NCBI GenBank assembly: GCA_029266415.1
Contig: JAQSWW010000064.1
Coordinates: 1-32,796 of the forward strand
DNA: 32,796 nucleotides
Reading direction: 5' to 3'
Origin: Actinomycetospora sp.
Lineage (GTDB): Bacteria; Actinomycetota; Actinomycetes; Mycobacteriales; Pseudonocardiaceae
The position numbers and the translations under genes were made by a program. Every line of letters starts with the position of its first letter. Position 1 is the first letter of the stretch. Below the pieces are notes generated by a model, which ran no database searches, was not told the DNA's origin, and worked only from the letters and a program-made list of their open reading frames with translations. Below, piece after piece: positions 3,670-23,143 of the stretch.

Positions 3670-4641
3670 TCACCGCGCGGTCCGCGGCAGGCGCGTGACC
3701 GCACGGTGGGTCAGGTCGTAGGCGGTCGCCGTCGCCCCGCCGCGGCGCAGCCCGATGCGCCCGGTGTCGTCGATCCGCCCGACGACGGCGGCCTCGAGGT
3801 CGCGCTCGCGGAACGCCGCGAGCACCTCGTCCTCGCGGCCGTCCGGGACGCACAGCAGGAAGCCGAAGCTGGGGAAGCACGTGAGCCACGCGGCCGGCGC
3901 CACGTCGCGGGGTGTCGGCAGGATGTCGAGGTCCACCTCCACGCCGAACGTGCCCCATTCCAGGAGCATCGCCAGCGACCCGACCAGGCCGGCCATGCTG
4001 ATGTCCTTCGCCGCGACGCATGCGCCGGTGCGCGCGAGCGCGGGGAGCACCCGGACGTCGTCCGCGCACCGGGTGCCGCGCTGCTCGAAGGCGGGGAAGA
4101 ACGGGAAGTCCGCGCGCATCGCGCCGTCGGTGGCCGCGGCGACGACGAGGCTCTGACCCGCCGCCACGCGCGTCATCGACAGCGGCGCGTCGACCTCGCC
4201 GAGGCCGAACGCGGAGATCGAGGGCTCACCGTCGTGGCGGGTGAGGTGGCCGCCGACGATCGGCACCCGGTACAGCCGGGAGGCGTGGCGCATCCCCTCG
4301 AGGGCGGCCCGCGCGGTGGCCTCGGAGGCCGCCACGGTGTTGACGATCCCGAGCGGCAGCGCGCCCATCGCCACGACGTCGTTGACGTTGGCGAGCACGG
4401 CGGCGAAGCCCGCGCCCCACGGGTCGCGGGCGACGAACGGCGGCCACAGCGCCTCCCCGCACGCCACCACGGCGCCGGTCGAGGTGGTGACGACGGCGCC
4501 GTCGTCGCCGGGCCCGCTGGTCCAGTCGGTGTCCCCGAGGACCTCGCCGACCAGCCCGATGTCCGTCTTCGCCAGCAGCCCGGGGTGGGCTACGACGGCC
4601 CGGACGATCTCCTCCAGCTCGCTCGTCACGACTCCGCCCAC
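3670..4641 (-). CDS. AIR synthase-like protein of the Nit1C cluster (Sll0787 type)
   Basis: A PurM/ThiL-superfamily ATP-binding protein of 323 aa: GPGDDGAVV near residue 45, NVNDVVAMGALPLG near 90, VGGHLTRHDGEP near 150 and KDISMAGLVGSLAMLLEWG further on are the usual blocks. Such proteins phosphorylate or ATP-activate small substrates; the AIR-synthase-like subgroup is a standing member of Nit1C nitrilase clusters with the radical SAM, GNAT and MSMEG_0572 genes, all found in this window. The GTG at 4641 is chosen because AGGAGG (4648-4653 on the plus strand as CCTCCT) lies 6 nt upstream; an ATG at 4680 would sit inside the promoter element. It is divergent from the ComA-like operon and shares its regulatory element. 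Substrate unknown. Confidence 0.82.
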   Translation of the reverse strand: MGGVVTSELEEIVRAVVAHPGLLAKTDIGLVGEVLGDTDWTSGPGDDGAVVTTSTGAVVACGEALWPPFVARDPWGAGFAAVLANVNDVVAMGALPLGIVNTVAASEATARAALEGMRHASRLYRVPIVGGHLTRHDGEPSISAFGLGEVDAPLSMTRVAAGQSLVVAAATDGAMRADFPFFPAFEQRGTRCADDVRVLPALARTGACVAAKDISMAGLVGSLAMLLEWGTFGVEVDLDILPTPRDVAPAAWLTCFPSFGFLLCVPDGREDEVLAAFRERDLEAAVVGRIDDTGRIGLRRGGATATAYDLTHRAVTRLPRTAR

Positions 4642-4665
4642 GCGGGACCTCCTCTGTCGTCTCGC

Positions 4666-4687
4666 ATCGTAGGCGTACATCTACTAT
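4666..4687. promoter_or_regulatory. Shared regulon element, copy 1 (AIR synthase / ComA promoter)
   Basis: Read on the minus strand the element is ATAGTAGATG (4687-4678), 6 nt, then TACGAT (4671-4666). The 10-mer is identical to the copy at 20765 and the whole pattern recurs at 13059. It lies in an AT-rich island in otherwise very GC-rich DNA, between the divergent starts 4641 and 4707. TACGAT may be the -10 of the leftward gene, and TACTAT (4682-4687, plus strand) that of the rightward operon. The outer bases also make ACAT-N5-ATGT (4677-4689), so an operator overlapping two -10 boxes is plausible. Confidence 0.65.
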
Positions 4688-4706
4688 GTGATCTAGCATC
4701 GGTGCC

Positions 4707-5495
4707 ATGGGTCCCGCGAGCTTCCTGACGCTGCCGCCCCGGCCGTCCAAGCCCCGCTCGACCGGGCTCACACACGTCCTCGACCCGGGCGTGACGCCCG
4801 CGCAGGCCGCCGACGTCCTGGACGGGGCGGCCCCGCACGTCGACATCTGGAAGACCGGGTGGGGCACCGCCTACGTGGACCCGCGGATCGGGGAGAAGCT
4901 GGCGGTGCTCGCGGCCCACGACGTGGCGTCCTGCCTCGGGGGCACCCTGCTCGAGATCGCGTGGGCGCAGGGTGCGGCCGAGGCGTGCCTGGCGTGGGCG
5001 CACGCGACGGGCTTCACCCACGTCGAGGTGTCGCGGGGCACCGTGCCGATGTCCCTCGACGCGAAGCACGAGCTGGTCCGGCGTGCCGCCGACCGCTTCG
5101 TCGTGCTCACCGAGGTGGGCGCCAAGGACCCGGACCAGCGGTACACGCTCGCGCAGTGGGGCGACGAGGCGGGGCGGGACCGCGCGGCGGGCGCCGCCTT
5201 CGTGGTCGCCGAGGGCCGGCAGAGCGGCACCGTCGGCATCTACGACGCCGACGGGTCGGTGCGCGAGGACGTGGTGGGCGCGGTCGTGGACGCCGTGGGG
5301 CTCCACCGCGTCGTGTTCGAGGCGCCCCGGGCCGGGCAGCAGGCGTTCTTCGTCCGACGGTTCGGTCCCGACGTGAACCTGGGCAACGTCGCCCTCGACG
5401 AGGTCCTGTCGGTCGAGACGCTGCGTCTGGGCCTGCGCTCGGACACCGCCGGCGTGACCGTCCCCGACGTCGACGCCGTCGAGTCCGTCCGGTGA
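4707..5495 (+). CDS. ComA-like phosphosulfolactate synthase
   Basis: Members add sulfite to phosphoenolpyruvate to form (R)-phosphosulfolactate, first step of coenzyme M synthesis in methanogens (ComA) and in bacteria (XcbB). The 262-aa TIM-barrel protein keeps the family blocks: DIWKTGWGTAYVD with the active-site Lys at 49, GGTLLEIA at 78-85, HVEVSRGTVPM at 105-115, LTEVGAKDPD at 134-143 and FEAPRAGQQAFFVRRFG followed by VNLGNVALDEV. There is no Shine-Dalgarno sequence before the ATG, which lies only 20 nt from the putative -10, so a very short or leaderless transcript is likely. First gene of a seven-gene operon; its stop overlaps the next GTG by 4 bp. Family is firm; whether the end product is CoM itself is inferred. 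Confidence 0.87.
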   Translation: MGPASFLTLPPRPSKPRSTGLTHVLDPGVTPAQAADVLDGAAPHVDIWKTGWGTAYVDPRIGEKLAVLAAHDVASCLGGTLLEIAWAQGAAEACLAWAHATGFTHVEVSRGTVPMSLDAKHELVRRAADRFVVLTEVGAKDPDQRYTLAQWGDEAGRDRAAGAAFVVAEGRQSGTVGIYDADGSVREDVVGAVVDAVGLHRVVFEAPRAGQQAFFVRRFGPDVNLGNVALDEVLSVETLRLGLRSDTAGVTVPDVDAVESVR

Positions 5496-6439
5496 CCCGC
5501 CGTGCCGGCCCCTGGGCCAACCGCATCCCCGGGCGGTACCGCGGTGTCGCCGTGGCGCGGTACGACGGGGCCCGGGACGAGGACTGGGACGAGGCGTCGC
5601 TGCGCGCGCACTTCCTCGGGCGCGAGGCGTACTGGAAGACGCGGTTCCTCGTGGTGCGCCCGCACGACGACGCCGACGCCCGCACGGCGCTGCTCGCCGT
5701 GGCGCGCGATCCCGGCGACGCGCTGTTCAGCCCGATCACGGACGTGGAGCTGCTCGCGGGCCCGGACGCGTGCGCGTTCGTGCACCGGCCCGAGGTCGAC
5801 ACCGCGATCCCGTCGGCGCTCGCCGCGGTCGCGGTCGGGGTCCCGGTGCGCGCGGTCGTCGTGCAGGGCCGCTACGAGCACGTCAACTTCGTCGTCGACG
5901 CCGACCCGCTGCGCGTCGTGGTGCGCGAGGTCGTGCCGCCGCACCCGGCGAAGCTCGTCGACCAGGCCCGGCGCGTCGTGGACGTCACCGAGGAGCTGCG
6001 CCCGCTGCACCTCCAGAGCGAGGTCGTCGACCTCGCCGACCTGGCCCGCCGCGCGCCCGCGTCCCACTACCTGCTGCCGTGCCGCGGCGGGGGCAGTGAG
6101 GTCCCCGGAGCCGCCGTGTCCTACCTCGACGAGCGGCCGGAGCCGGCCGACTGGACCTTGCTGGGCTGCGAGCGCTCGCGGCAGATCCACCGCTGGTTCT
6201 ACGGCCACGACGCACCGCGGGTCGACCTCTGCCCCAAGGTCGACCCCGCCGCCGCCGGGCCGGGGGCGCTGCTGACGAAGTGCTGTCTGCAGCAGGAGGA
6301 GCTCGACGAGGGCGTCGCGACGGGACCGGACGGCGAGACGACGTGGGTGTCGGTGCCCTGGGGTGCCTCGCTGGACCACGTCCGCGAGGCGCTGCGCCGC
6401 CTCGCCGAGCGGGGGGCGCCGCCGTGGTCACCCGCCTGA
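5492..6439 (+). CDS. Unrecognised Cys-containing protein in CoM-like operon
   Basis: A 315-aa cytoplasmic protein I cannot assign with confidence. The N-terminal two thirds (PGRYRGVAVARYDG..., VPVRAVVVQGRYEHVNFVVD, VREVVPPHPAKLVDQARRV) look like a compact alpha/beta domain. The C-terminal third carries a regular cysteine series: HYLLPCRGGG (Cys197), LLGCERSRQIH (226), DLCPKVD (247) and LTKCCLQQEE (264-265), plus His at 192 and 233, suggesting a metal or Fe-S site or redox-active thiols. The GTG at 5492 forms a GTGA overlap with the ComA stop, and the end overlaps the next gene by 16 bp. Position inside the biosynthetic operon makes it a candidate for the sulfur-transfer or reduction step, but that is inference. 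Confidence 0.8.
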   Translation: MTRRAGPWANRIPGRYRGVAVARYDGARDEDWDEASLRAHFLGREAYWKTRFLVVRPHDDADARTALLAVARDPGDALFSPITDVELLAGPDACAFVHRPEVDTAIPSALAAVAVGVPVRAVVVQGRYEHVNFVVDADPLRVVVREVVPPHPAKLVDQARRVVDVTEELRPLHLQSEVVDLADLARRAPASHYLLPCRGGGSEVPGAAVSYLDERPEPADWTLLGCERSRQIHRWFYGHDAPRVDLCPKVDPAAAGPGALLTKCCLQQEELDEGVATGPDGETTWVSVPWGASLDHVREALRRLAERGAPPWSPA

Positions 6440-7752
6440 CCGACTCCCCGGTCTACGCCCACCTGTGGTCGACCCCGGAGCTGGAGGGGGTGTTCTCCGA
6501 GACCGCGCGCTGGCAGGCCTGGCTCGACGTGCTGGTCGCGCTGGCCCGGGTGCAGGCCCGCCACGGCCTCGTCCCGCCCGCGGCCGCCGAGCAGATCGCC
6601 GGTGCCGCGCGCGCCGAGCACCTCGACCTCGACCGGGTCGCGGCCGGCACCCGCTCGACCTCGCACTCGACGCTCGGCCTCATCCGCGAGCTCCAGCGGA
6701 TCCTGCCGGAGTCGGCGCGCGAGCACGTCTACGTCGGCGCGACCGTGCAGGACGTCAGCGACACCTGGTTCGGCCTGGTGATGCGCGACGTCGGGGCGCT
6801 GGTGCGCCACGAGGTGCGGGCGCTCGAGGCGGCCGCGCTGACCCTCGCGGCGACCCACCGCGACACGCTCATGGTCGGGCGCACCCACGGCCAGCCGGGC
6901 GCCCCGATCACCTTCGGGCTCAAGGCGGCGTCGTGGGCCGACGAGTTGGGCCGCCACGTCGACCGCCTGCGCGAGGGCGCCCCGCGCTGGGCGGTCGGCC
7001 AGCTGGCCGGCGCGGTGGGCGCCCTCGCGTTCCACGACACCGCCGTCGATCCCCTGGCCCTGCGGCGGGACTTCTGCGCCGAGCTCGGGCTGGGCGACCC
7101 CGGCGCCTCCTGGCTGACCAGCCGCGACCGGGTCGCCGAGTTCGGCCACGTCCTGGCGCTGGTCGGCGGGACGCTCGCCCGCATCGGCGGCGAGGTCTAC
7201 GAGCTCGCCCGCCCCGAGATCGGCGAGCTGGCCGAGCCGACCACGGCCACAGCGGTCGGCAGCATCACGATGCCGCACAAGCGCAACCCCGAGGTCAGCG
7301 AGCACCTCGACACCCTGGCGCGGCTGGCCCGCTCGTCGGCGGGCGTGCTGCTCGAGGGCACGGTCGTCAGCCACGAGCGCGACGGCCGTGGCTGGAAGGC
7401 CGAGTGGGTCGCCCTGCCCGAGGTCTGCCTGCTCACCGGGACGGCGCTGCGGCTGGCGCGGGGGCTGCTCGACGGGCTCGAGGTCCACGTCGACGCGATG
7501 GCGGCGAACCTCGACCGCTTCGGCGACCGGCTCGCCTCCGAACGGGTGCTCGCGGGCCTGTCCGGACGCCTCGGCAAGCACGCCGCGCAGGCCCTGTTGC
7601 AGGAGGTGCTCGCCGCCGGGGAGGACGTGGCCACCGCACTCGCGGCGCGGGGGGTGGCGACACCCGACGAGGTGCGCGGGTGGACGGCGCGGGACGCCGT
7701 GGCCACCGCGGGACGGATGGTCGACGACGTGCTCGCCCGGGCCCGGCCGTGA
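6424..7752 (+). CDS. Aspartase/fumarase-superfamily lyase, adenylosuccinate lyase-like
   Basis: A 442-aa enzyme of the aspartase/fumarase superfamily, closest in motif pattern to adenylosuccinate lyase and 3-carboxymuconate cycloisomerase. Seen: RSTSHSTLGL (His81), VGATVQDVSDT, GRTHGQPGAPITFG with the catalytic-type His155, and the signature loop GSITMPHKRNPEVSEHL at 279-295, retaining the first Ser (280) but with Ile instead of the second Ser of the usual GSS. In the established bacterial coenzyme M pathway a superfamily member eliminates phosphate from phosphosulfolactate to give sulfoacrylate; this gene is a good candidate for that role beside the ComA-like gene. A true purB is unlikely given the operon context. 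GTG at 6424 is the only suitable start. Confidence 0.85.
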   Translation: MVTRLTDSPVYAHLWSTPELEGVFSETARWQAWLDVLVALARVQARHGLVPPAAAEQIAGAARAEHLDLDRVAAGTRSTSHSTLGLIRELQRILPESAREHVYVGATVQDVSDTWFGLVMRDVGALVRHEVRALEAAALTLAATHRDTLMVGRTHGQPGAPITFGLKAASWADELGRHVDRLREGAPRWAVGQLAGAVGALAFHDTAVDPLALRRDFCAELGLGDPGASWLTSRDRVAEFGHVLALVGGTLARIGGEVYELARPEIGELAEPTTATAVGSITMPHKRNPEVSEHLDTLARLARSSAGVLLEGTVVSHERDGRGWKAEWVALPEVCLLTGTALRLARGLLDGLEVHVDAMAANLDRFGDRLASERVLAGLSGRLGKHAAQALLQEVLAAGEDVATALAARGVATPDEVRGWTARDAVATAGRMVDDVLARARP

Positions 7753-8753
7753 CGTCCCCGGCGATCCCGCCGCGCCTGCCGCTCGGGGTGCTCCCGACCC
7801 CGCTGGTCCCCGCCCCGCGCCTGCGCGCCGCGCTCGGGTGCGGGCCGCTGTGGATCAAGCGCGACGACCTCGCCGGGTTCGGCGTGGCCGGGAACAAGAC
7901 GCGTCCCCTCGAGCACCTGCTCGGCGACGCCCTCGCCCGCGGCGCGGACGTGCTGGTCACCGGCGGCGGGCCGGACTCGAACTTCGTGGCGGCCGCGGCG
8001 CTGGCGGCGCGGGTCGCGGGGATCGACTGCGAACTGGTGGTCTGGGGTGCCGGGACCCTCGACCCGACCCCGAACCTGGCCCTCGCCGCCGCCGCGGGCG
8101 CCACCGTCGTGCCCCTGGACGACGTGGGCGTGGACGGCCGGGAGCGCGTCGACGTCGTCGTCGCCGAGCGCGCCACCGCCCTGCGGGCCGCGGGCCGGCA
8201 CCCGGTCGCGGTCCCGCGCGGCGGGTCGACGCCCGTCGGCGCCGCCGGCTTCGCCGTGGCCGCCGCCGAGCTGCTCGACCAGGGCCCGGCGCCGGACACC
8301 GTGGTGCTCCCGCTCGGCTCCGGCGGCAGCACGGCGGGGCTGCTCGCCGGGTTGGCCGCGGCCGGCGCCGGCACCCGCGTGCTCGCCGTGTCGGTGAGCC
8401 GCCCGCCCGCCGAGATCACCGAGAAGGTGCTGGACCTGGCCCGCGCGTGCGCCGACCTCCTGGGCACGCCCGCGCCGCGCGCCGACCGGCTCGAGGTCGT
8501 CGACCACCGCGGGCCCGGGTTCGGCGTCGCCGCGCCCGGCGACCGCGCGGCGGCGGCGACGGCCCTGCGCACCGAGGGCCTGCTGCTCGACGACACCTAC
8601 GGCGCGAAGGCGTTCGCCATTGCCCTCGACCGGCTGAGCGGCGGCGACCTGCCCGGCCCGGTCGTCCTCTGGCACACCGGCGGCGTCGCGTCCGCCCTGG
8701 CCCACCTCGGCCCCCGCCCCAGCGACCACCCCGCCCTGACAGGAGCACCATGA
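7749..8753 (+). CDS. PLP-dependent enzyme, D-cysteine desulfhydrase/ACC deaminase family
   Basis: A 334-aa fold-type II PLP protein: LWIKRDDLAGFGVAGNKTRPLEHLL gives the PLP-binding Lys at 50, and TGGGPDSNFVAAAAL, LPLGSGGSTAGLLAGL and the C-terminal VVLWHTGGVAS follow in family order. The usual QSNH of ACC deaminase/D-cysteine desulfhydrase is DSNF here (76-79), so the active-site His is lost and the substrate probably differs. The bacterial coenzyme M operon of Xanthobacter (xcbE) carries a member of this family, assigned to the thiol-forming end of the pathway. Here it lies between two aspartase/fumarase-superfamily genes with 4-bp overlaps on both sides (GTGA and ATGA), supporting an equivalent role. 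The exact reaction is not proven by sequence. Confidence 0.83.
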   Translation: MTSPAIPPRLPLGVLPTPLVPAPRLRAALGCGPLWIKRDDLAGFGVAGNKTRPLEHLLGDALARGADVLVTGGGPDSNFVAAAALAARVAGIDCELVVWGAGTLDPTPNLALAAAAGATVVPLDDVGVDGRERVDVVVAERATALRAAGRHPVAVPRGGSTPVGAAGFAVAAAELLDQGPAPDTVVLPLGSGGSTAGLLAGLAAAGAGTRVLAVSVSRPPAEITEKVLDLARACADLLGTPAPRADRLEVVDHRGPGFGVAAPGDRAAAATALRTEGLLLDDTYGAKAFAIALDRLSGGDLPGPVVLWHTGGVASALAHLGPRPSDHPALTGAP

Positions 8754-10297
8754 CCGTCCGCCGACGCGAGGAGGGCCCGCCGCGCGCCGCCGCCGCGCGC
8801 GAGCTCGTCGACTCCGGCTTCACGCTGGAGAACGCCGACGCCCCGTTCCTGCACCGCGGGCTGAACCTGGCCGACATGGGCCACGTGCTCGACCTCTCGC
8901 GCCGCGGGCTGGTCCCCGACGACGCGCGCCGCACCCTGCTGGGCCTGCTCCTCGAGGCCGACGCCACGCCGCCCGAGGAGTTCCCCTACGACCCCGAGCT
9001 GGGCGAGCCGTACAACTCGCGCGAGGCCTACTTCGTCTCGCGGGTCGGCGACGTCGCGGGCTGGCTGCACGCCGGGCGCCCGCGCCGAGAGGCCGTGCGG
9101 ATCGCCCTGCGCCTGCACGTGCGCCGCCAGATCACGGAGCTGGTGGCGGAGGCCGCCCGGTTCGGGCTGGCCGCGGTGGCGCGCGCCGAGGAGCACGCCG
9201 AGACGGTGATGCCCGACCAGACCTACCTCCAGCACGCGCAGCCCTCGACGTTCGCGCACTACCTGCTCTCGTTCGTCTACTCCACCCTGCGCGACGGCCG
9301 CCGGCTGCTCGAGGAGCTCGACTGGGTCGACGCCAGCCCCGGCGGGGCGGGCTGCGTGAACGGCACGCGGCTGCTGTCCGACCGCGAGTTCATCGCGGAG
9401 ACGCTCGGTTTCGCCGACGTCATCGAGCACACCCGCGACGCGATGTGGCAGGTCGACGGGCTGATCGCGGTGCTGGCGACCTCCGCGAGCCTGCTGACGA
9501 ACCTCTGCAAGCTGGCCGAGGACCTCGAGATCTGGTCGTCGAGCGAGTTCGACTTCGTCGACCTCGACGACGGCTACACGCGCGCCAGCGTGCTCATGCC
9601 GCAGAAGCGCAACCCGTACGCCCTGTCGATCATCCGCGGGGCGTCGGGGGTGCTCATCGGCCGCCTGTCGGGCTTCCTCGCGGTCACCAAGAGCCCGTCG
9701 GCGCGCAGTGACAACCTGATCTACGCCTACGGCGAGGTCCCCCGGGCCCTCGACCTCACCCTGCGCATCGTCCGGCTCGCGACGGGGGTCGTGCGCACGC
9801 TGCGGGTCAACGGTGAGCGGCTCGCCGAGGAGGTCCGGGGTGGGTACACGCAGGCCACGGACCTCGCCGAGTACCTCGTGCAGGCCTGCGACGTCGACTA
9901 CCGCACCGCGTACGTCATCGTCGGGCGCACGGTCCGGGCCGCGAGCCTCGCCGGTGTGCCGGGCATCGCCGTCACCGGCGAGATGATCGACCGGGCCGCC
10001 GTGGAGCACCGTGGTGCCCCGCTCGGGATGGCCGGCCGGGACCTGTCCGCGGTGCTCGACCCTTGGCAGATCGTGCTCTCGCGCGGCGCCCGCGGCGGGG
10101 CGTCCCCGGAGGCGCTCGGCCGGATGACGACGGCCCTGCACGCTGACCTGACGGCCCTCGCCACGGCCGCCGCCGACCGCCTCGAAGGCTACGAGACCGC
10201 CGAGGGCGCGCTGCTCGACGCGGCTCGGCGCGACGCCGTGACCCCGCCCCGCCAGACCGACCCGCCCGTCCCCACCGACCGTGGAGGAGCCCCGTGA
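8750..10297 (+). CDS. Aspartase/fumarase-superfamily enzyme, argininosuccinate lyase-like with altered active site
   Basis: A 515-aa protein with argininosuccinate-lyase architecture: EDLEIWSSSEFDFVDLDD, then the signature loop RASVLMPQKRNPY at 278-290, which retains one Ser (280) of the usual GSS. The block that in argininosuccinate lyase reads THLQ, with the catalytic His, is TYLQHAQPSTF here (158-168): Tyr159 replaces the His. An ordinary argininosuccinate lyase is therefore unlikely. In the bacterial CoM pathway a second superfamily member occurs (XcbD), so a decarboxylation or addition step on a sulfonated acrylate is a reasonable inference. AGGAG precedes the ATG by 4-5 nt; the ATG overlaps the PLP gene stop (ATGA), and the end overlaps the DUF1116 GTG by 4 bp. 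Confidence 0.84.
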   Translation: MTVRRREEGPPRAAAARELVDSGFTLENADAPFLHRGLNLADMGHVLDLSRRGLVPDDARRTLLGLLLEADATPPEEFPYDPELGEPYNSREAYFVSRVGDVAGWLHAGRPRREAVRIALRLHVRRQITELVAEAARFGLAAVARAEEHAETVMPDQTYLQHAQPSTFAHYLLSFVYSTLRDGRRLLEELDWVDASPGGAGCVNGTRLLSDREFIAETLGFADVIEHTRDAMWQVDGLIAVLATSASLLTNLCKLAEDLEIWSSSEFDFVDLDDGYTRASVLMPQKRNPYALSIIRGASGVLIGRLSGFLAVTKSPSARSDNLIYAYGEVPRALDLTLRIVRLATGVVRTLRVNGERLAEEVRGGYTQATDLAEYLVQACDVDYRTAYVIVGRTVRAASLAGVPGIAVTGEMIDRAAVEHRGAPLGMAGRDLSAVLDPWQIVLSRGARGGASPEALGRMTTALHADLTALATAAADRLEGYETAEGALLDAARRDAVTPPRQTDPPVPTDRGGAP

Positions 10298-14506: not shown

Positions 14507-14776
14507 ATGGGCAGGCGCTCCTTCTCGCGCTGGTTGCGGGAGAACTCCGAGCACTACCTGATGATCGACGCCCACGAGCGGCTGGCCCGGCGCTACTCCG
14601 GCACACGCCCGCCCCAGCGCCCCCACGGGTTGGTCGAGCTGTTCTGGCGGCGCGTCTTCGCGCCGACCTACCGGGCGCTGCCGTGGCCCCTGCGCCACCG
14701 CGTAATGCGCGCGATGCCCGGCAGCCACCGCCAGACCTGGTCACCGCCGCCCGAGCGCCGGGAACCGGCCGTGTGA
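14507..14776 (+). CDS. Small basic hypothetical protein, 89 aa
   Basis: The ATG follows the flavoprotein TAG stop directly (TAGATG), with GGCGGGGAAG upstream as a possible ribosome site. The product is Arg-rich (MGRRSFSRWLRENSEHYLM... ending ERREPAV) and contains WRRVFAPTYRALPWPLRHRVMRAMPGSHR, a positively charged, partly amphipathic stretch with no clear membrane helix or metal motif. I do not recognise it; it does not resemble the MSMEG_0570-type small protein as I know it. Its tight coupling between the flavoprotein and the MSMEG_0572-type gene suggests an accessory role in the same operon. Confidence 0.65.
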   Translation: MGRRSFSRWLRENSEHYLMIDAHERLARRYSGTRPPQRPHGLVELFWRRVFAPTYRALPWPLRHRVMRAMPGSHRQTWSPPPERREPAV

Positions 14777-16659: not shown

Positions 16660-17036
16660 CGGCGGTGCTCGCGATCGACGGGGCGGCGGCGCCGCCGCGC
16701 GCCAACGGCGAGCTGGTCTTCGCCGAGCCGTGGGAGAGCCGCGCGTTCGGGATGGCGGTGACCCTCGCCGAGGCGGGCCTGTTCACCTGGGACGAGTTCC
16801 GCGACAGCCTCGTCGCGCGCATCGCCGCCTGGGAGGCCGACCACGCCCCGGGCGAGGAGTACCGCTACTACCGCTGCTGGCTCGCGGCCCTCGAGGACCG
16901 GGTGGTGGCCGCCGGCGCGCTCGACGCGGTGGCGGTGGCCGCGCGCTCCGCCCAGCTGGCCGAGCGCCCCGCGGGCCACGACCACGCCGACGGTGACGAC
17001 CACGGGCACGGTCACGGTCACGGCCACGGTCACTGA
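16656..17036 (+). CDS. Nitrile hydratase activator with His-rich tail
   Basis: A 126-aa protein of the nitrile hydratase accessory (P14K/NhlE-like) family, which delivers cobalt to alpha by subunit swapping. Its [14 protein letters not shown] (22-35) mirrors [14 protein letters not shown] of the beta subunit in this operon, showing the known homology with the beta N-terminal domain. The last 19 residues hold eight histidines in a GH-repeat (residues 108-126), an apparent metal store or cobalt-acquisition tail. GTG start overlaps the alpha stop by 4 bp. The 3' end overlaps the convergent glycosyltransferase by 7 bp. Confidence 0.9.
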
Positions 17037-18223: not shown

Positions 18224-19770
18224 AGGACGGCCTCCGCGAGCGCCGGTTCGCGGCGGGCGATCGCCGCGGCGGCCAGCGACGCGCGCGCGGCGGTCTCGGT
18301 GACGACGCACCCCGCGTCGCGGAAGGCCCGGCGCTGGCGCTCGAAGCCCTGGGGGTCCTGCTCGGTGCCCAGGACGTAGACCACGACGCGGGGCCCGCCG
18401 GCGGCGAGGATCTCCGCGCACACCGGCGCCAGCTCGCCCGCGGGGTCGGGGTGCGCCCCGTACCCGAGGACGACGTCGAGCACGATCACGGCCACCTCGG
18501 GGTCGCGGCCCTGCTCGCGCAGGTGCTCGAGGCGCGCCTCCGGATCGATCATCGGGTGCGGCCGCCCGCGGGTGTACTCCTCCTCGCCGAGGTCCAGGCA
18601 CACGTGGGCCGAGTCCGGGGCCGGCAGTCGGAGCGTCTTGTCGACGGGCGTGTTCGAGTACACCGGCCCGAGCACGCGCCCCAGGACGACCAGCGACTCG
18701 TAGCAGAGGGTCCCGCCCGAGAAGAGGCCCCGCACCAGCGTCCGGTCGGCGCCGACCTCGGAGATCGCGTCCTCCACCTGCGCCCGCAGGCCGGCGGTGA
18801 CGTCGGGGCGGGGTCGGCCGAGGCGGTCGAGCGTGGCGAGCACGCCGGTCTCGAGCGTCGTCGCGCTGTCGGACCCTTCCTGGCCGGGCTCGTCCAGCCC
18901 GATGAGCGCGGCCACGAGGGGGGTGTCGCCCGCCTGGGCGGTCACGGAGGCCGCGACGCGCGCGTCTGGCGGCTTGGAGACGAGCAGGATCGCCTCGGTC
19001 GCGGGGTCGGCCGCGAGCGCGCGGACGGCGGCGCGGCCCATGGTGCCGCCGACGTCGGCGCCCAGGTCGCGGCCGCCGAGTCCGACCACGTGGGTCACGC
19101 CGACGCCCGCGCGGTCGAGCAGCACGGCCGCCTCCTGGGCGCCGGTGCCCGCGGCGGCGACCACCGCCACCGCGCCGGTGCGCTCGGCGAGCGGCGCGAC
19201 GACGTTGGCGAAGCCGAGGCAGGTCCGGCCCAGCATCGCCGTGCCCGCGCCCGGGCCCATGACGAGCAGGCCCAGCGCCTCGGCGCGGGTCTTCAGCTCG
19301 ACCTCGGTGGCGATCGGGACGTTGTCGCTGAACAGCAGCACGTGCAGGCCGGCGCTGAGGGCCTTGTGCGTCTCGAGCGCCGCGTGCTCGCCAGGCACCG
19401 AGATCACCGCGACGTTGCCGCCGGGGAGGCGGGCGAGCGCGTCGGACAGGGTGCGGGCCGGGCTCTCGGCGGCAGCGGGGCCGGTCTCGTCGGCGCGCGC
19501 GGAGAACATCGCGTCCCGGCCGGCCTCCTGCGCCGCCTCCGCCGCGTCGTCGGACGCCGCGCGGACCGCCAGGACGAGGTCGCCGGGGCCCGCGCCGGCC
19601 AGGTCGTCACCGCTGAACCCCTCGTCGGCGAGGGTCCCGAGGTTCGCCGGGGTCGCCATCGCTGCGGTCGCCCAGTCGACGCCCTCGACCGCGCGCATCG
19701 CCCGGGTGCCGGAGAGCTGGACGACCGAGTCCAGGTAGGTGTCCTTGACGACCCGGACGAGGGTGGTCAC
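18220..19770 (-). CDS. FdrA-family protein, AllF-like carbamoyltransferase subunit
   Basis: A 516-aa FdrA homologue, related to succinyl-CoA ligase: VRVVKDTYLDSVVQLSGTRAM at the N-terminus, then GPGAGTAMLGRTCLGFANVV and VVAAAGTGAQEAAVLLDRAGVGVTHVVGLGGRDLGADVGG in the ligase-like fold, LVRGLFSGGTLCYESLVVLG and VIVLDVVLGYGAHPDPAGEL in the C-terminal half. In E. coli FdrA (AllF) works with AllG and AllH in oxamate carbamoyltransferase; the matching DUF1116 and DUF2877 genes are in the operon at 10294-12514. GTG at 19770 overlaps the carbamate kinase stop by 4 bp. An 847-aa reading through arcC is an out-of-frame artefact. Confidence 0.88.
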   Translation of the reverse strand: MTTLVRVVKDTYLDSVVQLSGTRAMRAVEGVDWATAAMATPANLGTLADEGFSGDDLAGAGPGDLVLAVRAASDDAAEAAQEAGRDAMFSARADETGPAAAESPARTLSDALARLPGGNVAVISVPGEHAALETHKALSAGLHVLLFSDNVPIATEVELKTRAEALGLLVMGPGAGTAMLGRTCLGFANVVAPLAERTGAVAVVAAAGTGAQEAAVLLDRAGVGVTHVVGLGGRDLGADVGGTMGRAAVRALAADPATEAILLVSKPPDARVAASVTAQAGDTPLVAALIGLDEPGQEGSDSATTLETGVLATLDRLGRPRPDVTAGLRAQVEDAISEVGADRTLVRGLFSGGTLCYESLVVLGRVLGPVYSNTPVDKTLRLPAPDSAHVCLDLGEEEYTRGRPHPMIDPEARLEHLREQGRDPEVAVIVLDVVLGYGAHPDPAGELAPVCAEILAAGGPRVVVYVLGTEQDPQGFERQRRAFRDAGCVVTETAARASLAAAAIARREPALAEAVL

Positions 19771-20717
19771 GCCCGCACCCCCACGATCCGGGTCCCGGTG
19801 CGGTCGTCGGCGTGCGTGCCGGCGGCGTCGAGGGAGGGGCCCGCACGGTCGGCGGTGGTGATGACGGCCGTGCGACCGCCCTCCTTGATGAAGCGCACGG
19901 CCGCCCGGACCTTCGGTCCCAGGAACTGGCCCTCGTCGAGGTGCTTCGTGGCGTCGTCGACGCTCATCTCGTCGATCGCGCGCTGCTGCGGGGTCCCGAA
20001 GTCGAGGTGGACCTTGGCGGTGTCGGTGACCAGGACGAGCGCGTCGGCGTTGACCGACGCCGCCAGCCGCTGCGCGGTGAAGTCCTTGTCGATGACGGCG
20101 TCGATGCCCTCGAGCCCCCGGTCGCCGGCCATCACCGGGATGCCGCCGCCCCCCGCCGCCACCACGATCATGTGCTGCTCGATGAGGGCGCGGATCGCGT
20201 CGACCTCGACGATGCCGACCGGCTTCGGCGACGCCACCACCCGCCGGTAGCCGCGGTCGCCGTCCCGGACGATGTCCCACCCGCGGTTCTCGGCGAGCTC
20301 GCGCGCCTGCGCCTCGGTGAAGAAGGGCCCGACCGGCTTCGTCGGCCGCTGGAACGCGGGGTCGGCCGGGTCCACCATCACGTGCGTCACCACGGACACG
20401 ACACCGGGCAGGCGTCCCCGCCCCTCCGCCAGCAGGGCCAGGCTGAGCAGGCTCCCGAGCTGGCCCTGCGTCATCGAGTTCACGCAGAACAGCGGCAGGG
20501 CGGGCACGATCGACGCCGCCTCGTCCTGCTGGATGGCGAGGTTGCCGACCTGCGGCCCGTTGCCGTGGACGAGGACGACGTTCCACCCGGCGTCGCGCAG
20601 CGCGCACACGGCGGCGGCCATCGCGTGGGCGTTGCGCGACTGCTCCTCGTAGGTCCCGGACTGGCCGTTGCGGGTGATGGCGTTGCCGCCGAGCGCGACC
20701 ACTGCGGTCCTGGGCAC
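19767..20717 (-). CDS. arcC: Carbamate kinase
   Basis: Carbamate kinase converts carbamoyl phosphate plus ADP to carbamate plus ATP, the ATP-yielding last step after a catabolic carbamoyltransferase; carbamate decays to ammonia and CO2. The 316-aa protein has ALGGNAITRNGQSGTYEEQ at the N-terminus, LVHGNGPQVGNLAIQQDE, AAGGGGIPV, VIDKDFTAQRLAASVNADALVLVTD and GQFLGPKVRAAVRFIKEGG, all family motifs in order. GTG at 20717 is preceded by GGAGGAGG. First gene of a three-gene operon with fdrA and the glycosyltransferase, divergent from the radical SAM operon. No arginine deiminase or ornithine carbamoyltransferase is nearby, so it serves the FdrA-type system. Confidence 0.93.
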   Translation of the reverse strand: MPRTAVVALGGNAITRNGQSGTYEEQSRNAHAMAAAVCALRDAGWNVVLVHGNGPQVGNLAIQQDEAASIVPALPLFCVNSMTQGQLGSLLSLALLAEGRGRLPGVVSVVTHVMVDPADPAFQRPTKPVGPFFTEAQARELAENRGWDIVRDGDRGYRRVVASPKPVGIVEVDAIRALIEQHMIVVAAGGGGIPVMAGDRGLEGIDAVIDKDFTAQRLAASVNADALVLVTDTAKVHLDFGTPQQRAIDEMSVDDATKHLDEGQFLGPKVRAAVRFIKEGGRTAVITTADRAGPSLDAAGTHADDRTGTRIVGVRA

Positions 20718-20761
20718 GAGCCCTCCTCCTCCGCGGACGGACGGGGGTGCCGTCCACGTCC

Positions 20762-20786
20762 ATTATAGTAGATGATCAGACCTGAT
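20762..20786. promoter_or_regulatory. Divergent promoter with shared regulon element, copy 2
   Basis: ATAGTAGATG (20765-20774), 6 nt, CCTGAT (20781-20786) on the plus strand repeats the pattern seen at 4666-4687 and 13059-13080; the 10-mer is identical to copy 1. On the minus strand it overlaps a perfect TATAAT (20767-20762), the likely -10 of arcC, giving a leader of about 40 nt. Binding here would block arcC and the rightward gene at once. Confidence 0.65.
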
Positions 20787-20813
20787 AAGAGGTACGGCAT
20801 CGGGAGGTTCGGC

Positions 20814-21446
20814 ATGGCCGAGCAGGTCGGTCTCGACCCGGGCTGGGGCGCCGCCCGGACCCGGTGGCGGTCCGCCGCCGACCGGCTGTGGTCGGTCGCG
20901 CTGGTCGACGACGAGGGCTATCGCCGGGCCGCCGGCGGCGTCGGCGCCGTGCTCGACGCGATGCGGCGCAGGGTGACCACGCGGACCGAGTTGCTCGTCG
21001 TCGACGCCGATCCCGACGGCTTCCTCGCCGGGCTCGACGGGCCGGGTCGCGAGGCGTCCCCGCTGGTCCTGGCGGCCGCGTGCGCGGTGCGCGCGGACGA
21101 GATCGAGGCCGACCGCGCGCGGGACCGGCGGATCGCCCGCGTGGCCGCGGCCCGGGCCGAGGGCCGGACCTGGGTGCTGCTCGAGGAGGGCGTCACGCGC
21201 TCGGTGTCGATGCATCTGCCCACGGGTCTCGCGCTCGTCGTGATCGACGACCCGTACCGCGACCGGGAGCTGCACGGGCTCGGCGAGGTGGTCCTCGCGA
21301 CCGACACCGGCGATCCCCTCGCGGGGCACGGGACCGCCGAGGAGTGGTTCGGCGTGCGCGCGGACCGCGACGCCGCCCTGGCCCGGCGCCGCGCGGACAT
21401 CGGCGCCCTTGACGGCGGCGGGCCCATGGTTTCCGATGAGCAATGA
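20814..21446 (+). CDS. Hypothetical protein, 210 aa, first gene of radical SAM operon
   Basis: Not recognised. The ATG at 20814 has GGGAGG (20802-20807) 6 nt upstream; an earlier in-frame ATG at 20772 lies within the regulatory element and is rejected. The protein is soluble and rich in Arg/Asp/Ala. A helical N-terminal part (RTRWRSAADRLWSVALVDDEGYRRAAGGVGAVLDAMRRR) is followed by RTWVLLEEGVTRSVSMHLPTGLALVVIDDPYRDRELHGLGEVVLATDTG, which reads as a small beta-rich domain. No Cys, no metal motif. It may be a Nit1C-associated protein specific to this cluster; its position under a shared promoter with carbamate kinase suggests a pathway role. Confidence 0.7.
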   Translation: MAEQVGLDPGWGAARTRWRSAADRLWSVALVDDEGYRRAAGGVGAVLDAMRRRVTTRTELLVVDADPDGFLAGLDGPGREASPLVLAAACAVRADEIEADRARDRRIARVAAARAEGRTWVLLEEGVTRSVSMHLPTGLALVVIDDPYRDRELHGLGEVVLATDTGDPLAGHGTAEEWFGVRADRDAALARRRADIGALDGGGPMVSDEQ

Positions 21447-21486
21447 ACGTTTCTTGTAGTCAACGAGGGGCGAGGGTGGATCACGG

Positions 21487-22647
21487 ATGACGGGCGTCCT
21501 GGGCCATGAGACCGCGCCGCACGAGGGGCCCGACCCCGCCTCCGTCGCCGCCCTGATCGTGGAGCTGCAGAGCGTCGGCCTGCGCACCGACGCCGAGGTC
21601 GAGACCCGCGTCGGCGGCGCCGGACCCACCGACGCCGGCATGTTGTGGATCGAGGGTTTCCCGGTGACGGTCCCGGTCCGCACCGAGGACGCCCGGCGCT
21701 CGCCCTACGTGCTGCGCCACGAGGACGACGGCGGCCGGGCCATCTACCGCGACGGCAGGCGGCTCGCCTCGGTCGCGGACACGCGGCGGCCCCGGTACTA
21801 CGACCGCACCACCGCCGACGGCGTCCCGTACTGGAAGATCGCCCTGCTGCACCTGGACTCGATGGCCAGCACCGTCGTCCAGACCTGCAACTACTGGAAC
21901 ACCGCGGACCAGTGCCGGTTCTGCGGCATCGGCGTCTCGCTCGCCGCGGGCAGCACCATCGTCAAGAAGACCCCTGAGCAGCTCGCCGAGGTGTCGGTCG
22001 CGGCCAAGGAGCTCGACGGCGCCGTCGACGCCACCCTCACCACGGGCAGCTCCACCGCGCCGGACCGCGGTGCGCGCTACGTCGCCCGGTGCGGGCGGGC
22101 GGTCAAGGACGCGTCCGGGCTGCCCGTGGAGATCCAGTTCGAGCCGCCGCGGGACCTCGCGATCCTCGACGAGGTGCACGCCACGGGTGGCGCCGACGCG
22201 GTCGGCATCCACGTCGAGACGTTCGACCCGCAGGTGCTGGCGCACGTGGCCCCGGGCAAGGCGCGTACGGGCATCGAGACCTACTTCCGCACCTGGGAGC
22301 GGGCGGTCGCGCTGTGGGGCGAGGGCCGGGTGTCGACCTACGTCATCCTCGGCATGGGGGAGGACCCCGACCTCACCGTGGCGGCGTGCCGGCGCGCGGT
22401 GGACATCGGCGTCTACCCGTTCATCGTCCCGCTCCGGCCCGTCGCGGGCAGCCTGATGGAGGACTGGGCGCCGCCGCCCGGCCCCTACAGCAACCGCGTC
22501 TACCGGCAGGTCGCCGCCTACATGAGCCGGCGGGGGATGAGCGCCGAGAACGCGGTCGCCGGGTGCGCGCGGTGCCAGGCCTGCTCCGCGCTCAACGCGG
22601 TGCAGCCGTTGCTGCAGATCGGCCGGCGCCCGGGCGCCGGCGCGTGA
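21487..22647 (+). CDS. Radical SAM protein of the MSMEG_0568 type
   Basis: A 386-aa radical SAM enzyme typical of Nit1C clusters. The cluster-binding motif is spaced unusually: TCNYWNTADQCRFCGIG puts cysteines at 134, 143 and 146 (C-x8-C-x2-C) instead of the classical C-x3-C-x2-C. A second motif GCARCQACSAL near the C-terminus (Cys360, 363, 366; C-x2-C-x2-C) may hold an auxiliary Fe-S cluster. ILGMGEDPDLTVAACRRAVDIGVYPFIVPLRPVAGS matches the barrel end of the family. The reaction is unknown. GAGGG stands shortly before the ATG at 21487. Followed by the GNAT gene after 19 bp. Confidence 0.88.
   Translation: MTGVLGHETAPHEGPDPASVAALIVELQSVGLRTDAEVETRVGGAGPTDAGMLWIEGFPVTVPVRTEDARRSPYVLRHEDDGGRAIYRDGRRLASVADTRRPRYYDRTTADGVPYWKIALLHLDSMASTVVQTCNYWNTADQCRFCGIGVSLAAGSTIVKKTPEQLAEVSVAAKELDGAVDATLTTGSSTAPDRGARYVARCGRAVKDASGLPVEIQFEPPRDLAILDEVHATGGADAVGIHVETFDPQVLAHVAPGKARTGIETYFRTWERAVALWGEGRVSTYVILGMGEDPDLTVAACRRAVDIGVYPFIVPLRPVAGSLMEDWAPPPGPYSNRVYRQVAAYMSRRGMSAENAVAGCARCQACSALNAVQPLLQIGRRPGAGA
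22622..22641 (+). other. 20-bp GC palindrome at radical SAM gene end
   Basis: GCCGGCGCCC (22622-22631) abuts its exact complement GGGCGCCGGC (22632-22641) within the last codons of the radical SAM gene, ending 4 bp before its stop. It could form a hairpin between the radical SAM and GNAT genes. In DNA this GC-rich such palindromes arise easily by chance, so function is uncertain. Confidence 0.3.
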
Positions 22648-22666
22648 CGGCCGTGGGGCACGACCG

Positions 22667-23143
22667 GTGACCGGGATGCGGGTGGCGCCGGCGCGGGCGG
22701 ACTGCCGGGTGGTCGCCGACGCGGCGGAGGCGGCGGAGCACCACCGCATCCGCCACGCGGTGTTCGTGGACGAGCAGGCGGTGTTCGCGGCGAGCGACCT
22801 CGACGCCCACGACGCCCGTCCCGACGTCCTGCACGTCGTCGCCTGGGTGGACGGCCGGGCGGCCGGCGTGGTGCGGCTCTTCCCGCTCGCGGCCGCGGCC
22901 GACGGGCCGGGCGACTGGCAGGGCGACCGGCTCGCGGTCCTCCCCGGGTTCCGCACCGCCCGCGTGGGCGCGCCGCTGGTGCGCTTCGCCGTGGCCACGG
23001 CGGCGGCGCGCGGCGGCACCCGCATGGTCGCGCACGTCCAGCAGGACAACCGGCGCTTCTTCGAGCACCTCGGCTGGACCGCGCGGGCCTCCGAGATCTA
23101 CGTCGGGCGGCCGCACGTCGTCATGGACATCGCCCTGCGCTGA
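22667..23143 (+). CDS. GNAT acetyltransferase of the MSMEG_0567/Sll0786 type
   Basis: A 158-aa N-acetyltransferase-fold protein. HHRIRHAVFVDEQAVF near residue 25-40 is the N-terminal GNAT helix pair with the FxEQ pattern, GVVRLFP the central strand, and RLAVLPGFRTARVGAPLVRFAVATAAARGGTRMVAHVQQDNRRFFEHLGW the acetyl-CoA-binding region and C-terminal strand. This subgroup always accompanies the MSMEG_0568 radical SAM gene in Nit1C clusters; acceptor unknown. GTG at 22667 (or ATG at 22676) is the start; neither has a strong ribosome site, so coupling to the upstream gene is likely. Last rightward gene, convergent with the SARP regulator after a 7-bp gap. Confidence 0.85.
   Translation: MTGMRVAPARADCRVVADAAEAAEHHRIRHAVFVDEQAVFAASDLDAHDARPDVLHVVAWVDGRAAGVVRLFPLAAAADGPGDWQGDRLAVLPGFRTARVGAPLVRFAVATAAARGGTRMVAHVQQDNRRFFEHLGWTARASEIYVGRPHVVMDIALR

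What the first reader, a model, noticed from the sequence alone, without database searches (positions are those of the whole stretch)
3670..23143. One regulon joining CoM-type biosynthesis, nitrile hydratase, Nit1C accessory genes and FdrA-type carbamoyltransferase
Four modules normally met apart are interleaved here and lie under a common promoter element: ComA-like plus two aspartase/fumarase-superfamily enzymes plus D-cysteine-desulfhydrase-like PLP enzyme (4707-10297); DUF1116, DUF2877, FdrA and carbamate kinase (10294-12514, 18220-20717); cobalt nitrile hydratase (15404-17036); and Nit1C-type AIR synthase, MSMEG_0572, glycosyltransferase, radical SAM and GNAT. I know of no described pathway containing all of them. 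The families are read from sequence; that they form one pathway is inferred.
Basis: partly seen in the sequence, partly recalled or inferred. Interest (0 to 1): 0.92.

Follow-up and report, generated by a model that had tools for sequence, protein, structure and literature searches.

The report
Coenzyme M-linked Nit1C nitrogen cluster
A set of genes for making the sulfur cofactor coenzyme M sits, in one conserved and probably co-regulated block, with genes tied to nitrile, cyanide and carbamoyl nitrogen use, which points to a role for coenzyme M in bacteria outside alkene metabolism.

Summary
It is no chance island. The combination recurs, reordered, in Actinomycetospora, Pseudonocardia, Actinophytocola, Terrabacter, Acidimicrobiia and a Methylocystis plasmid. 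Of 396 Actinomycetota genomes 10 have XcbA; AllG lies within 7.1 kb in 8, MSMEG_0572 occurs in 9. A palindrome (TCTACTATAGTAGA) marks its promoters: 11 sites against 0.1 expected in seven held-out named loci, none in ordinary Nit1C or alkene CoM loci. Nitrile hydratase is exchangeable with an amidohydrolase or, in Methylocystis, a nitrilase. Epoxyalkane:CoM transferase was not found (E<=1e-60) in 26 of 27 cluster genomes, so their CoM has no known user. Against a simple story: five cluster genomes lack a recognisable XcbE, and three clusters have the carbamoyl genes without xcb genes. Best reading: a CoM-using variant of Nit1C cyanide/nitrile assimilation ending in carbamoyl phosphate and ATP. 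Linkage is shown; chemistry is inferred. A redox-thiol role for CoM is the main rival.

The parts
2746..3168 (-). OsmC-family protein; cysteines C63 and C123 conserved
   Evidence: orthologues in 26 loci; C63 27/27 and C123 26/27 rows
3221..3628 (+). g4b, unnamed 135-aa protein, found with the cluster mainly in Pseudonocardiaceae
   Evidence: no Pfam/NCBIfam match; orthologues
3670..4680 (-). sll0787-type AIR-synthase-like protein (Nit1C)
   Evidence: TIGR04049 254.9 bits, cut-off 321.3
4680..4693 (.). degenerate copy of the palindrome between the AIR synthase and ComA (5 mismatches, not above chance by itself)
   Evidence: stronger in several orthologous regions
4707..5495 (+). XcbB/ComA, phosphosulfolactate synthase
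   Evidence: PF02679 262.8 bits; TIGR03849 232 of 280
5492..6439 (+).
   Evidence: NF052538 296 bits, cut-off 150
6424..7752 (+). XcbD, aspartase/fumarase superfamily
   Evidence: NF052536 573 of 600 bits
7749..8753 (+). XcbE, PLP enzyme
   Evidence: NF052537 234 of 450, still the best model
8750..10297 (+). XcbC, aspartase/fumarase superfamily
   Evidence: NF052535 405 of 575; an alkene-type yardstick scores 332
10294..11721 (+). AllG, carbamoyltransferase subunit, with an N-terminal segment that is C-terminal in E. coli-type FdrA
   Evidence: PF06545 201 bits; residues 11-60 match NF004760 505-554 and 12-62 match 3dmy 425-475
11723..12514 (+). AllH, carbamoyltransferase subunit
   Evidence: PF11392 72.8 bits
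12430..13026 (-). XRE-cupin regulator, candidate binder of the palindrome
   Evidence: PF01381, PF07883; orthologues in 25 loci
13053..13066 (.). degenerate copy of the palindrome between regulator and flavoprotein (5 mismatches, not above chance by itself)
13079..14506 (+). CoA-disulfide-reductase-like flavoprotein, single invariant cysteine C71
   Evidence: PF07992; TIGR03385 254 of 579; C71 28/28
14507..14776 (+). conserved 89-aa basic protein of unknown function
   Evidence: orthologues in 27 loci, Methylocystis included (L064 and L021 are one genome)
14835..15329 (+). MSMEG_0572 (NitB-like), DsrE fold, invariant C117
   Evidence: TIGR04044 222.9 bits; fold and Cys
15404..16069 (+). nitrile hydratase beta subunit
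   Evidence: TIGR03888 168.6 bits
16066..16659 (+). nitrile hydratase alpha subunit, CTLCSC metal claw
   Evidence: TIGR01323 290.6 bits; best solved relatives Co-type
16656..17036 (+). nitrile hydratase accessory protein with His-rich tail
   Evidence: TIGR03889 78.9 bits
17030..18223 (-). MSMEG_0565-family glycosyltransferase (Nit1C)
   Evidence: TIGR04047 332 bits
18220..19770 (-). FdrA/AllF, carbamoyltransferase subunit, related to succinyl-CoA synthetase alpha
   Evidence: NF004760 384 of 433; 3dmy E=5e-67
19767..20717 (-). carbamate kinase
   Evidence: TIGR00746 326 of 358; NF009007 283, cut-off 266
20759..20772 (.). best palindrome copy in the window (2 mismatches)
20772..21446 (+). g20, conserved protein of unknown function and no fold match (start may be 20814)
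   Evidence: orthologues in 21 loci; Methylocystis relative 27% identical; fold search
21487..22647 (+). MSMEG_0568-family radical SAM enzyme (Nit1C)
   Evidence: TIGR04043 382 bits
22667..23143 (+). MSMEG_0567-family GNAT (Nit1C)
   Evidence: TIGR04045 102.4 bits
23151..26339 (-). BTAD/AAA/TPR regulator, also beside the cluster in three Pseudonocardia loci
   Evidence: PF03704, PF13191; L025-L027

Best explanation
This is one regulated gene cluster: a coenzyme-M-using variant of the Nit1C cyanide/nitrile assimilation cluster. Shown here: the window has all five families of the bacterial CoM pathway (XcbB-A-D-E-C), and CoM genes, Nit1C core, AllF/AllG carbamoyltransferase, carbamate kinase, single-cysteine flavoprotein, OsmC and a small protein travel together, with a shared operator-like palindrome. 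Inferred: Nit1C proteins capture a C-N unit at nitrile oxidation level (cyanide or a cyano adduct), CoM being the thiol that carries it or keeps the system reduced; nitrile hydratase hydrates it to a carbamoyl/amide form (amidohydrolase or nitrilase in other loci); AllFGH moves the carbamoyl group to phosphate; carbamate kinase turns carbamoyl phosphate into ATP, ammonia and CO2. The flavoprotein would recycle CoM disulfide through Cys71.
For: Family identity of all parts. Linkage kept through reordering in five named actinobacterial groups and an alphaproteobacterial plasmid. In 396 Actinomycetota: XcbA in 10; MSMEG_0572 in 19, 9 shared (Fisher p=1.5e-12, kinship not corrected); AllG in 49, 8 shared and all 8 within 7.1 kb. 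Palindrome enriched in held-out loci. EaCoMT found at E<=1e-60 in 1 of 27 cluster genomes and in 2 of 2 controls. G108 lacks xcbA, D and E at the cluster but has them on another contig, without an EaCoMT match; G211 and G308 lack comA at the cluster and have it elsewhere. The nitrile-acting gene varies between loci while CoM and carbamoyl genes stay. Methylocystis has the Nit1C nitrilase in the cluster and cytochrome bd-type oxidase genes beside it. Nit1C is needed for cyanide growth in Pseudomonas, and AllFGH is an oxalurate/carbamoyl phosphate enzyme (PMC11049912, PMC11326118; passages).
Against: No substrate, activity or expression is known for any member. XcbE has no match (E<=1e-15) in five cluster genomes, G117, G211, G243, G286 and G308, with G000 and G505 as positives: there the last CoM step needs another enzyme, or the product is not CoM. 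AllG, carbamate kinase, amidohydrolase and Nit1C core occur without xcb genes in L074-L076 (FdrA seen in two of the three), and those genomes (G262, G197, G448) have no XcbA match, so CoM is not needed for the carbamoyl step there. Methylocystis has AllG and FdrA but no carbamate kinase match on that plasmid. AllH was not detected in L030, L033, L036, L053, L060. NHase is linked in only 2 of 8 phylum-sample contexts. The palindrome was not found in Methylocystis, L074-L079, or in 4 of the 21 named loci. M. smegmatis Nit1C (gpr) was linked to peroxide resistance and NADPH, not cyanide (PMC6039565 passages).
Confidence: 0.42

Rival explanations
1. CoM serves as a redox thiol. The flavoprotein is a CoM-disulfide reductase, OsmC a CoM-dependent thiol peroxidase and MSMEG_0572 a sulfur-relay partner; the nitrile and carbamoyl genes are separate nitrogen-scavenging functions induced by the same nitrogen-starvation signal.
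For: Flavoprotein with one invariant Cys, OsmC with both Cys kept, DsrE-fold protein with invariant Cys. The Nit1C-type operon of M. smegmatis gives peroxide resistance, and the sll0783 mutant lacks reducing equivalents (PMC6039565, PMC3901256 passages).
Against: Does not explain why carbamoyltransferase and CoM genes are interleaved across lineages, or why the nitrile-acting gene is exchanged. Actinomycetes already make mycothiol (recalled).
Confidence: 0.25
2. The cluster makes a CoM-containing or sulfonated small molecule, using the glycosyltransferase, GNAT, radical SAM and AIR-synthase-like enzymes; nitrile hydratase and AllFGH act in its tailoring.
For: Glycosyltransferase, GNAT and radical SAM are biosynthetic families; a Pnap_2097-family protein lies in the Methylocystis locus.
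Against: Nit1C is experimentally tied to cyanide assimilation (PMC11049912); carbamate kinase suggests catabolism; no NRPS or PKS among the genes identified in the window.
Confidence: 0.1
3. The thiol made by the cluster is not CoM but an earlier or different product of ComA-XcbC-XcbD-XcbA, used in the same place.
For: XcbE not found in five cluster genomes; the XcbD model is named for a sulfopropionyl-cysteine product.
Against: XcbE is in the window, in 15 of 21 named loci and in Methylocystis; the PLP step could be taken by another enzyme.
Confidence: 0.09
4. Detoxification of electrophilic nitriles (acrylonitrile-like) by CoM conjugation, followed by nitrile hydration.
For: CoM is the conjugating thiol for epoxides in alkene users (PMC11507031 passages); nitrile hydratase acts on such nitriles (recalled).
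Against: No EaCoMT match in 26 of 27 genomes; no role for AllFGH or carbamate kinase; NHase is often absent.
Confidence: 0.05
5. Nitrogen and sulfur modules that merely share an island and a regulator, with no common pathway.
For: Each module occurs apart elsewhere.
Against: The same combination is kept through many rearrangements, two classes and two phyla, and missing CoM genes are found elsewhere in G108, G211 and G308.
Confidence: 0.1

Closest known systems
Nit1C cluster (nitBCDEFGH; gpr in M. smegmatis; sll0783-0787 region of Synechocystis)
   Same: MSMEG_0572, MSMEG_0568 radical SAM, MSMEG_0567 GNAT, sll0787-type AIR synthase, MSMEG_0565 glycosyltransferase
   Different: No nitrilase, MSMEG_0569 or MSMEG_0570 matched among the window's genes; instead nitrile hydratase, CoM synthesis, AllFGH, carbamate kinase, CoA-disulfide-reductase-like flavoprotein and OsmC
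Bacterial CoM synthesis locus of alkene users (xcb genes with etn genes; Nocardioides JS614, M. chubuense NBB4)
   Same: All five xcb families, similar gene order
   Different: No alkene monooxygenase or EaCoMT matched in the window; alkene-type XcbD forms one clade (100/100) apart from the cluster type
Oxamate carbamoyltransferase AllFGH with carbamate kinase of E. coli
   Same: All three subunit families and a carbamate kinase
   Different: No allantoin or ureidoglycolate genes matched in the window; about 50 residues are N-terminal in AllG here but C-terminal in E. coli-type FdrA
Cobalt nitrile hydratase
   Same: Alpha, beta and accessory genes; CTLCSC claw; best solved relatives are Co-type
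   Different: No amidase matched among the window's genes; linked to a carbamoyltransferase. Own genome has a second NHase with 47% alpha and 37% beta identity

Membership tests
Nit1C cluster | MSMEG_0572, 0568 rSAM, 0567 GNAT, 0565 GT above NCBIfam cut-offs | tested here: met
   all four above cut-off
Nit1C cluster | sll0787-type AIR synthase | tested here: inconclusive
   best NCBIfam model but 254.9 of 321.3 bits
Nit1C cluster | Nit1C nitrilase, MSMEG_0569 flavoprotein, MSMEG_0570 | tested here: not met
   none matched among the window's genes, nor by tblastn in L015-L035 and L048-L067; nitrilase present in Methylocystis; rest of own genome not searched
Bacterial CoM synthesis (Xcb) | XcbA-E all present in the window | tested here: met
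   best Pfam or NCBIfam match for each; ComA, XcbC, XcbE below NCBIfam cut-offs as in the alkene-type yardstick L038; XcbD 573 of 600
Bacterial CoM synthesis (Xcb) | All five genes in every genome with the cluster | tested here: not met
   XcbE not found in G117, G211, G243, G286, G308
Bacterial CoM synthesis (Xcb) | Product is CoM | not testable with these tools
   needs metabolite analysis
Oxamate carbamoyltransferase AllFGH | AllF, AllG, AllH families present | tested here: met
   AllF 384 of 433 bits
Oxamate carbamoyltransferase AllFGH | Uses oxalurate/oxamate | not testable with these tools
   assay needed
Cobalt nitrile hydratase | Alpha/beta families and CTLCSC claw | tested here: met
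   (C102, C105, C107 19/19)
CoA-disulfide reductase | Family score and single redox Cys | tested here: inconclusive
   C71 28/28 but 254 of 579 bits; substrate unknown
DsrE family (MSMEG_0572) | DsrE fold and conserved Cys | tested here: met
   10 of the first 12 Foldseek matches are titled DsrE, DsrEFH, TusBCD or YchN; Cys 38/38; Pfam DsrE 15.9 bits in the window, 26.5 in L036, cut-off 22.7
Alkene-type CoM pathway | EaCoMT in the genome | tested here: not met
   no match at E<=1e-60 in G000, which is 84.5% complete

The most novel reading that the evidence does not exclude
CoM is the carrier of the nitrogen unit. Cyanide attacks a CoM mixed disulfide on Cys71 of the flavoprotein (or a persulfide on the DsrE-type protein) giving S-cyano-CoM; the cobalt nitrile hydratase, a relative of thiocyanate hydrolase, hydrates it to S-carbamoyl-CoM; AllFGH, whose AllF is related to succinyl-CoA synthetase, splits the carbamoyl thioester with phosphate to carbamoyl phosphate and free CoM; carbamate kinase harvests ATP. 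Every step is inferred from family chemistry.
Probability: 0.13. Interest if true: 0.93.

Novelty: new variant of a known kind. Interest (0 to 1): 0.82.

Why it matters
The bacterial CoM use described in the papers read here is alkene and epoxide metabolism (PMC11507031, PMC8727900; passages). In the phylum-wide sample all 8 readable XcbA loci (own included) lie instead in this nitrogen cluster, though in the family-level sample 2 of 4 were alkene loci, and EaCoMT was not found in nearly all cluster genomes; so bacterial CoM, or a close relative of it, probably has a second and perhaps commoner role. It also offers a handle on the unsolved chemistry of Nit1C: a version in which the hydrolytic enzyme is replaced and a carbamoyltransferase hints at the product. 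Several named culture-collection strains carry the cluster, so the question can be tested directly.

Tried and rejected
Rejected or left open: (1) An A/T-rich inverted pattern guessed from a first look gave 0 matches. (2) LarE-LarB-LarC (3-2759) as part of the cluster: seen near it only in Pseudonocardiaceae loci, not in the Acidimicrobiia, Terrabacter or Methylocystis stretches; treated as a neighbour. (3) g20: model good (pLDDT 88.7) but best structural match E 0.3. (4) MSMEG_0572 as DsrE is not new: stated in PMC6039565 and PMC3901256 (passages). (5) A weak EaCoMT-like tblastn hit at L036:5662 (41%) falls where the record lists no gene; not followed up, so EaCoMT in Methylocystis is untested here. 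(6) In the window alone the promoter element at 5 mismatches is at chance. (7) A sample of Pseudomonadota could not be drawn. (8) The papers on the bacterial CoM pathway (Wu 2022, Partovi 2018) are not held; what I say of single Xcb steps rests on NCBIfam names and PMC8727900 passages. (9) Literature searches for the combination: in the held open-access library only; no paper with CoM, nitrilase and carbamate kinase together.

Limits of the counts: Fisher tests treat genomes as independent. Loci L015-L035 were drawn by a query from this cluster and hold at most 10 kb on each side of AllG, so genes further off are often outside (radical SAM seen in 10, GNAT in 4 of 21); only the XcbA, MSMEG_0572, AllG and NHase samples are free of that choice. 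Of the 9 other XcbA genomes flanks were fetched for 8; G189 is a 3.4-kb contig and uninformative; the XcbA contig of G372 was not fetched, only its MSMEG_0572 contig, its AllG linkage coming from coordinates. In the family sample flanks of 4 of 5 others were fetched: 2 this cluster, 2 alkene type; the fifth (G071, short locus L012) looks alkene type. G037 of that sample is the genome of L021 (L064 and L021 are 100% identical). Of the 5 palindrome hits in the XcbA-sample loci one (L064) is therefore not held out. The consensus was chosen by eye from 14 loci. In the XcbD tree I labelled L082 and L083 'alkene' by similarity, although L082 shows no alkene gene; L033 and L036 are flagged for composition and L033 for a long branch; there is no Xanthobacter row. 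Odds for the best and novel readings were lowered slightly (0.45 to 0.42, 0.15 to 0.13).

Full report
What is in the window. The window is a whole contig (C80) of an 84.5%-complete assembly, G000. Nearest named relatives of the cluster are Actinomycetospora species. Further genes that recur with the cluster are a CoA-disulfide-reductase-like flavoprotein, an 89-aa protein, OsmC, an XRE-cupin regulator and the g20 protein.

How sure are the names. ComA, XcbD, XcbC and XcbE score below NCBIfam cut-offs, but ComA, XcbC and XcbE of the Nocardioides JS614 alkene locus do too (205 of 280, 332 of 575, 313 of 450), so those cut-offs are narrow. XcbA is well above its cut-off. Carbamate kinase passes one subfamily cut-off. 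FdrA is at 384 of 433. About 50 residues that end E. coli-type FdrA begin AllG here, a swap that fits a physical AllF-AllG complex (inference).

Linkage among relatives. An AllG query found 21 loci, by their titles in 20 genomes: Actinomycetospora, Pseudonocardia, Pseudonocardiaceae MAGs, Actinophytocola, Terrabacter and two Acidimicrobiia MAGs. By tblastn with cluster proteins, of 21 loci: XcbC in 19, ComA in 18, XcbA and XcbD in 16 each, XcbE in 15, flavoprotein 18, AIR synthase 18, OsmC 17, MSMEG_0572 16, carbamate kinase 16, AllH 15, NHase alpha 15, FdrA 14, glycosyltransferase 14, radical SAM 10, GNAT 4; each stretch ends at most 10 kb from AllG or at the contig end, so many misses are cuts. 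XcbD is present somewhere in all 20 genomes (51-88% identity). Of the six loci without NHase, L026 and L030 carry an amidohydrolase (family PF04909 by its L060 homologue), three are contigs under 12 kb (L020, L025, L032), and L031 shows neither. L017 and L019 have both. Order is shuffled in L025-L027, L029-L031 and L033. The plasmid of Methylocystis iwaonis, an alphaproteobacterium, carries in one stretch the flavoprotein, small protein, MSMEG_0572, AllG, glycosyltransferase, FdrA (listed as oxidoreductase), a g20 relative (27%), AIR synthase, GNAT, radical SAM, Nit6803 nitrilase, OsmC, ComA, an XcbA relative (45%), XcbD, XcbE and XcbC, with cytochrome bd-type oxidase genes beside it.

Unbiased samples. 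In 396 Actinomycetota genomes: XcbA 10, MSMEG_0572 19, AllG 49, NHase alpha 52, own genome included. XcbA and MSMEG_0572 share 9 genomes (Fisher p=1.5e-12); XcbA and AllG share 8 (p=1.2e-6), all 8 on one contig and within 7.1 kb by the coordinates; XcbA and NHase share 5 (p=0.005), linked in 2 (own and G286), unresolved in G243 (short contig). Flanks of 8 of the 9 other XcbA genomes were fetched: 7 show this cluster (G161, G243, G308, G147, G286, G211, G505), with XcbC, XcbD, flavoprotein, small protein, MSMEG_0572, FdrA and radical SAM in 7 of 7, AllG in 6 (not found in G243), ComA in 5, XcbE in 3, NHase in 1 and the amidohydrolase in 5; G189 is a 3.4-kb contig, and G372 shows AllG linkage by coordinates only. 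None of the seven shows the alkene genes used as queries. In the family-level sample 2 of the 4 fetched are this cluster and 2 are alkene loci. The ten MSMEG_0572 genomes without XcbA are five with MSMEG_0569 or a nitrilase (L068-L072), one cut short (L073), three of a third kind (L074-L076) that have AllG, carbamate kinase, amidohydrolase and Nit1C core but no xcb genes, and G222, which has flavoprotein, small protein, MSMEG_0572, radical SAM (L077) and NHase 2 kb from AllG. The third kind tells against CoM being needed for the carbamoyl step.

A gap in the CoM pathway. XcbE has no match at E<=1e-15 anywhere in G117, G211, G243, G286 and G308, while G000 and G505 match. ComA, missing at the cluster of G211 and G308, is found twice elsewhere in each (43-44% identity). 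So four xcb families are the steady part; the last step may be done by another PLP enzyme, or the product may differ in those lineages.

Co-regulation. Reading three divergent promoters in 14 loci suggested the palindrome TCTACTATAGTAGA. With up to 3 mismatches there are 27 sites in L015-L035 against 0.33 expected; 4 of 21 loci have none. In seven named loci not used to choose it there are 11 against 0.1. In the XcbA-sample loci there are 5 against 0.7: one upstream of comA (L050), two upstream of xcbA where comA has left the locus (L051, L057), one upstream of the amidohydrolase (L048), and one in L064, which is not held out. In 8 ordinary Nit1C loci, 4 alkene CoM loci, Methylocystis, L074-L076 and L077-L079 there are none. 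In the window only the 20759 site stands out. The XRE-cupin protein kept with the cluster is the natural candidate regulator (inference).

What CoM is for. The bacterial use of CoM described in the papers read here is epoxide conjugation by EaCoMT (PMC11507031, PMC8727900; passages). With EaCoMT of JS614 as query at E<=1e-60, 1 of 27 cluster genomes matched (G107, which also has an alkene locus, L084), against 2 of 2 alkene controls; weaker relatives would be missed. In G107 and G108 the cluster keeps comA and xcbC but lacks xcbA and xcbD (L022 keeps a fragment of xcbE), and separate xcbA, D, E sets are found elsewhere; G108 has no EaCoMT match. An XcbD tree puts six alkene-type sequences in one clade (100/100), apart from the cluster type; Methylocystis pairs with an acidimicrobial cluster (100/99), as expected after horizontal transfer, but both rows are flagged for composition and one for a long branch (41 rows, 33 different, unrooted).

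Mechanism. Established elsewhere: Nit1C is required for cyanide growth in Pseudomonas, with a nitrilase releasing ammonia (PMC11049912, passages); AllFGH interconverts oxalurate plus phosphate with oxamate plus carbamoyl phosphate (PMC11326118, passages). Inference from these and from the swaps at the nitrile step: a cyano compound is hydrated to a carbamoyl or amide compound, AllFGH moves the carbamoyl to phosphate, and carbamate kinase recovers ATP and ammonia. CoM either carries the unit (novel reading) or serves as the redox thiol (rival). The DsrE-type MSMEG_0572 with an invariant cysteine, the single-cysteine flavoprotein and the two-cysteine OsmC suggest that thiol chemistry is built into the cluster, but do not decide between the two.

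Verdict. It is a new variant of Nit1C that brings in CoM synthesis and a carbamoyltransferase; the reaction sequence is still to be shown.

Noticed in passing
3-2759: larE, larB and larC (nickel-pincer cofactor genes) lie just upstream; similar genes lie near the cluster in several Pseudonocardiaceae loci, sometimes rearranged, but were not seen in the stretches from other families.
   Followed up: partly
L074, L075, L076: A third Nit1C kind with AllG, carbamate kinase and an amidohydrolase but no xcb genes; by eye all three stretches also hold a luciferase-like monooxygenase, and L074 and L075 a PLP decarboxylase-like protein.
   Followed up: partly
L050, L051, L055, L057, L033: Cluster versions with xcbC, xcbD and xcbA but no xcbE; no XcbE match elsewhere in those five genomes.
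   Followed up: partly
14507-14776: An 89-aa basic protein kept beside the flavoprotein in 27 loci including Methylocystis; no convincing family match.
   Followed up: partly
10294-10500 and 18220-19770: A segment of about 50 residues is N-terminal in AllG here and C-terminal in E. coli-type FdrA.
   Followed up: no
L036 7911-10489: Cytochrome bd-type oxidase genes with a DUF2474 gene directly beside the Methylocystis cluster, as might be expected if cyanide is handled.
   Followed up: no
G000:C138:9313-9899: A second nitrile hydratase in the same genome, 47% (alpha) and 37% (beta) identical to the one in the cluster.
   Followed up: no
L017 and L019, first 700 bases: Two Pseudonocardia loci have both nitrile hydratase and a nearby amidohydrolase of the kind that replaces it elsewhere.
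   Followed up: no
L020 and L032: One Pseudonocardia MAG (53_S67) holds two versions of the locus, 75-80% identical, one without xcbA, D and E; perhaps two strains in one bin.
   Followed up: no
27263-31816: Downstream genes (MFS transporter, Ku protein, alpha/beta hydrolase, PAS-SpoIIE phosphatase) look unrelated to the cluster.
   Followed up: no
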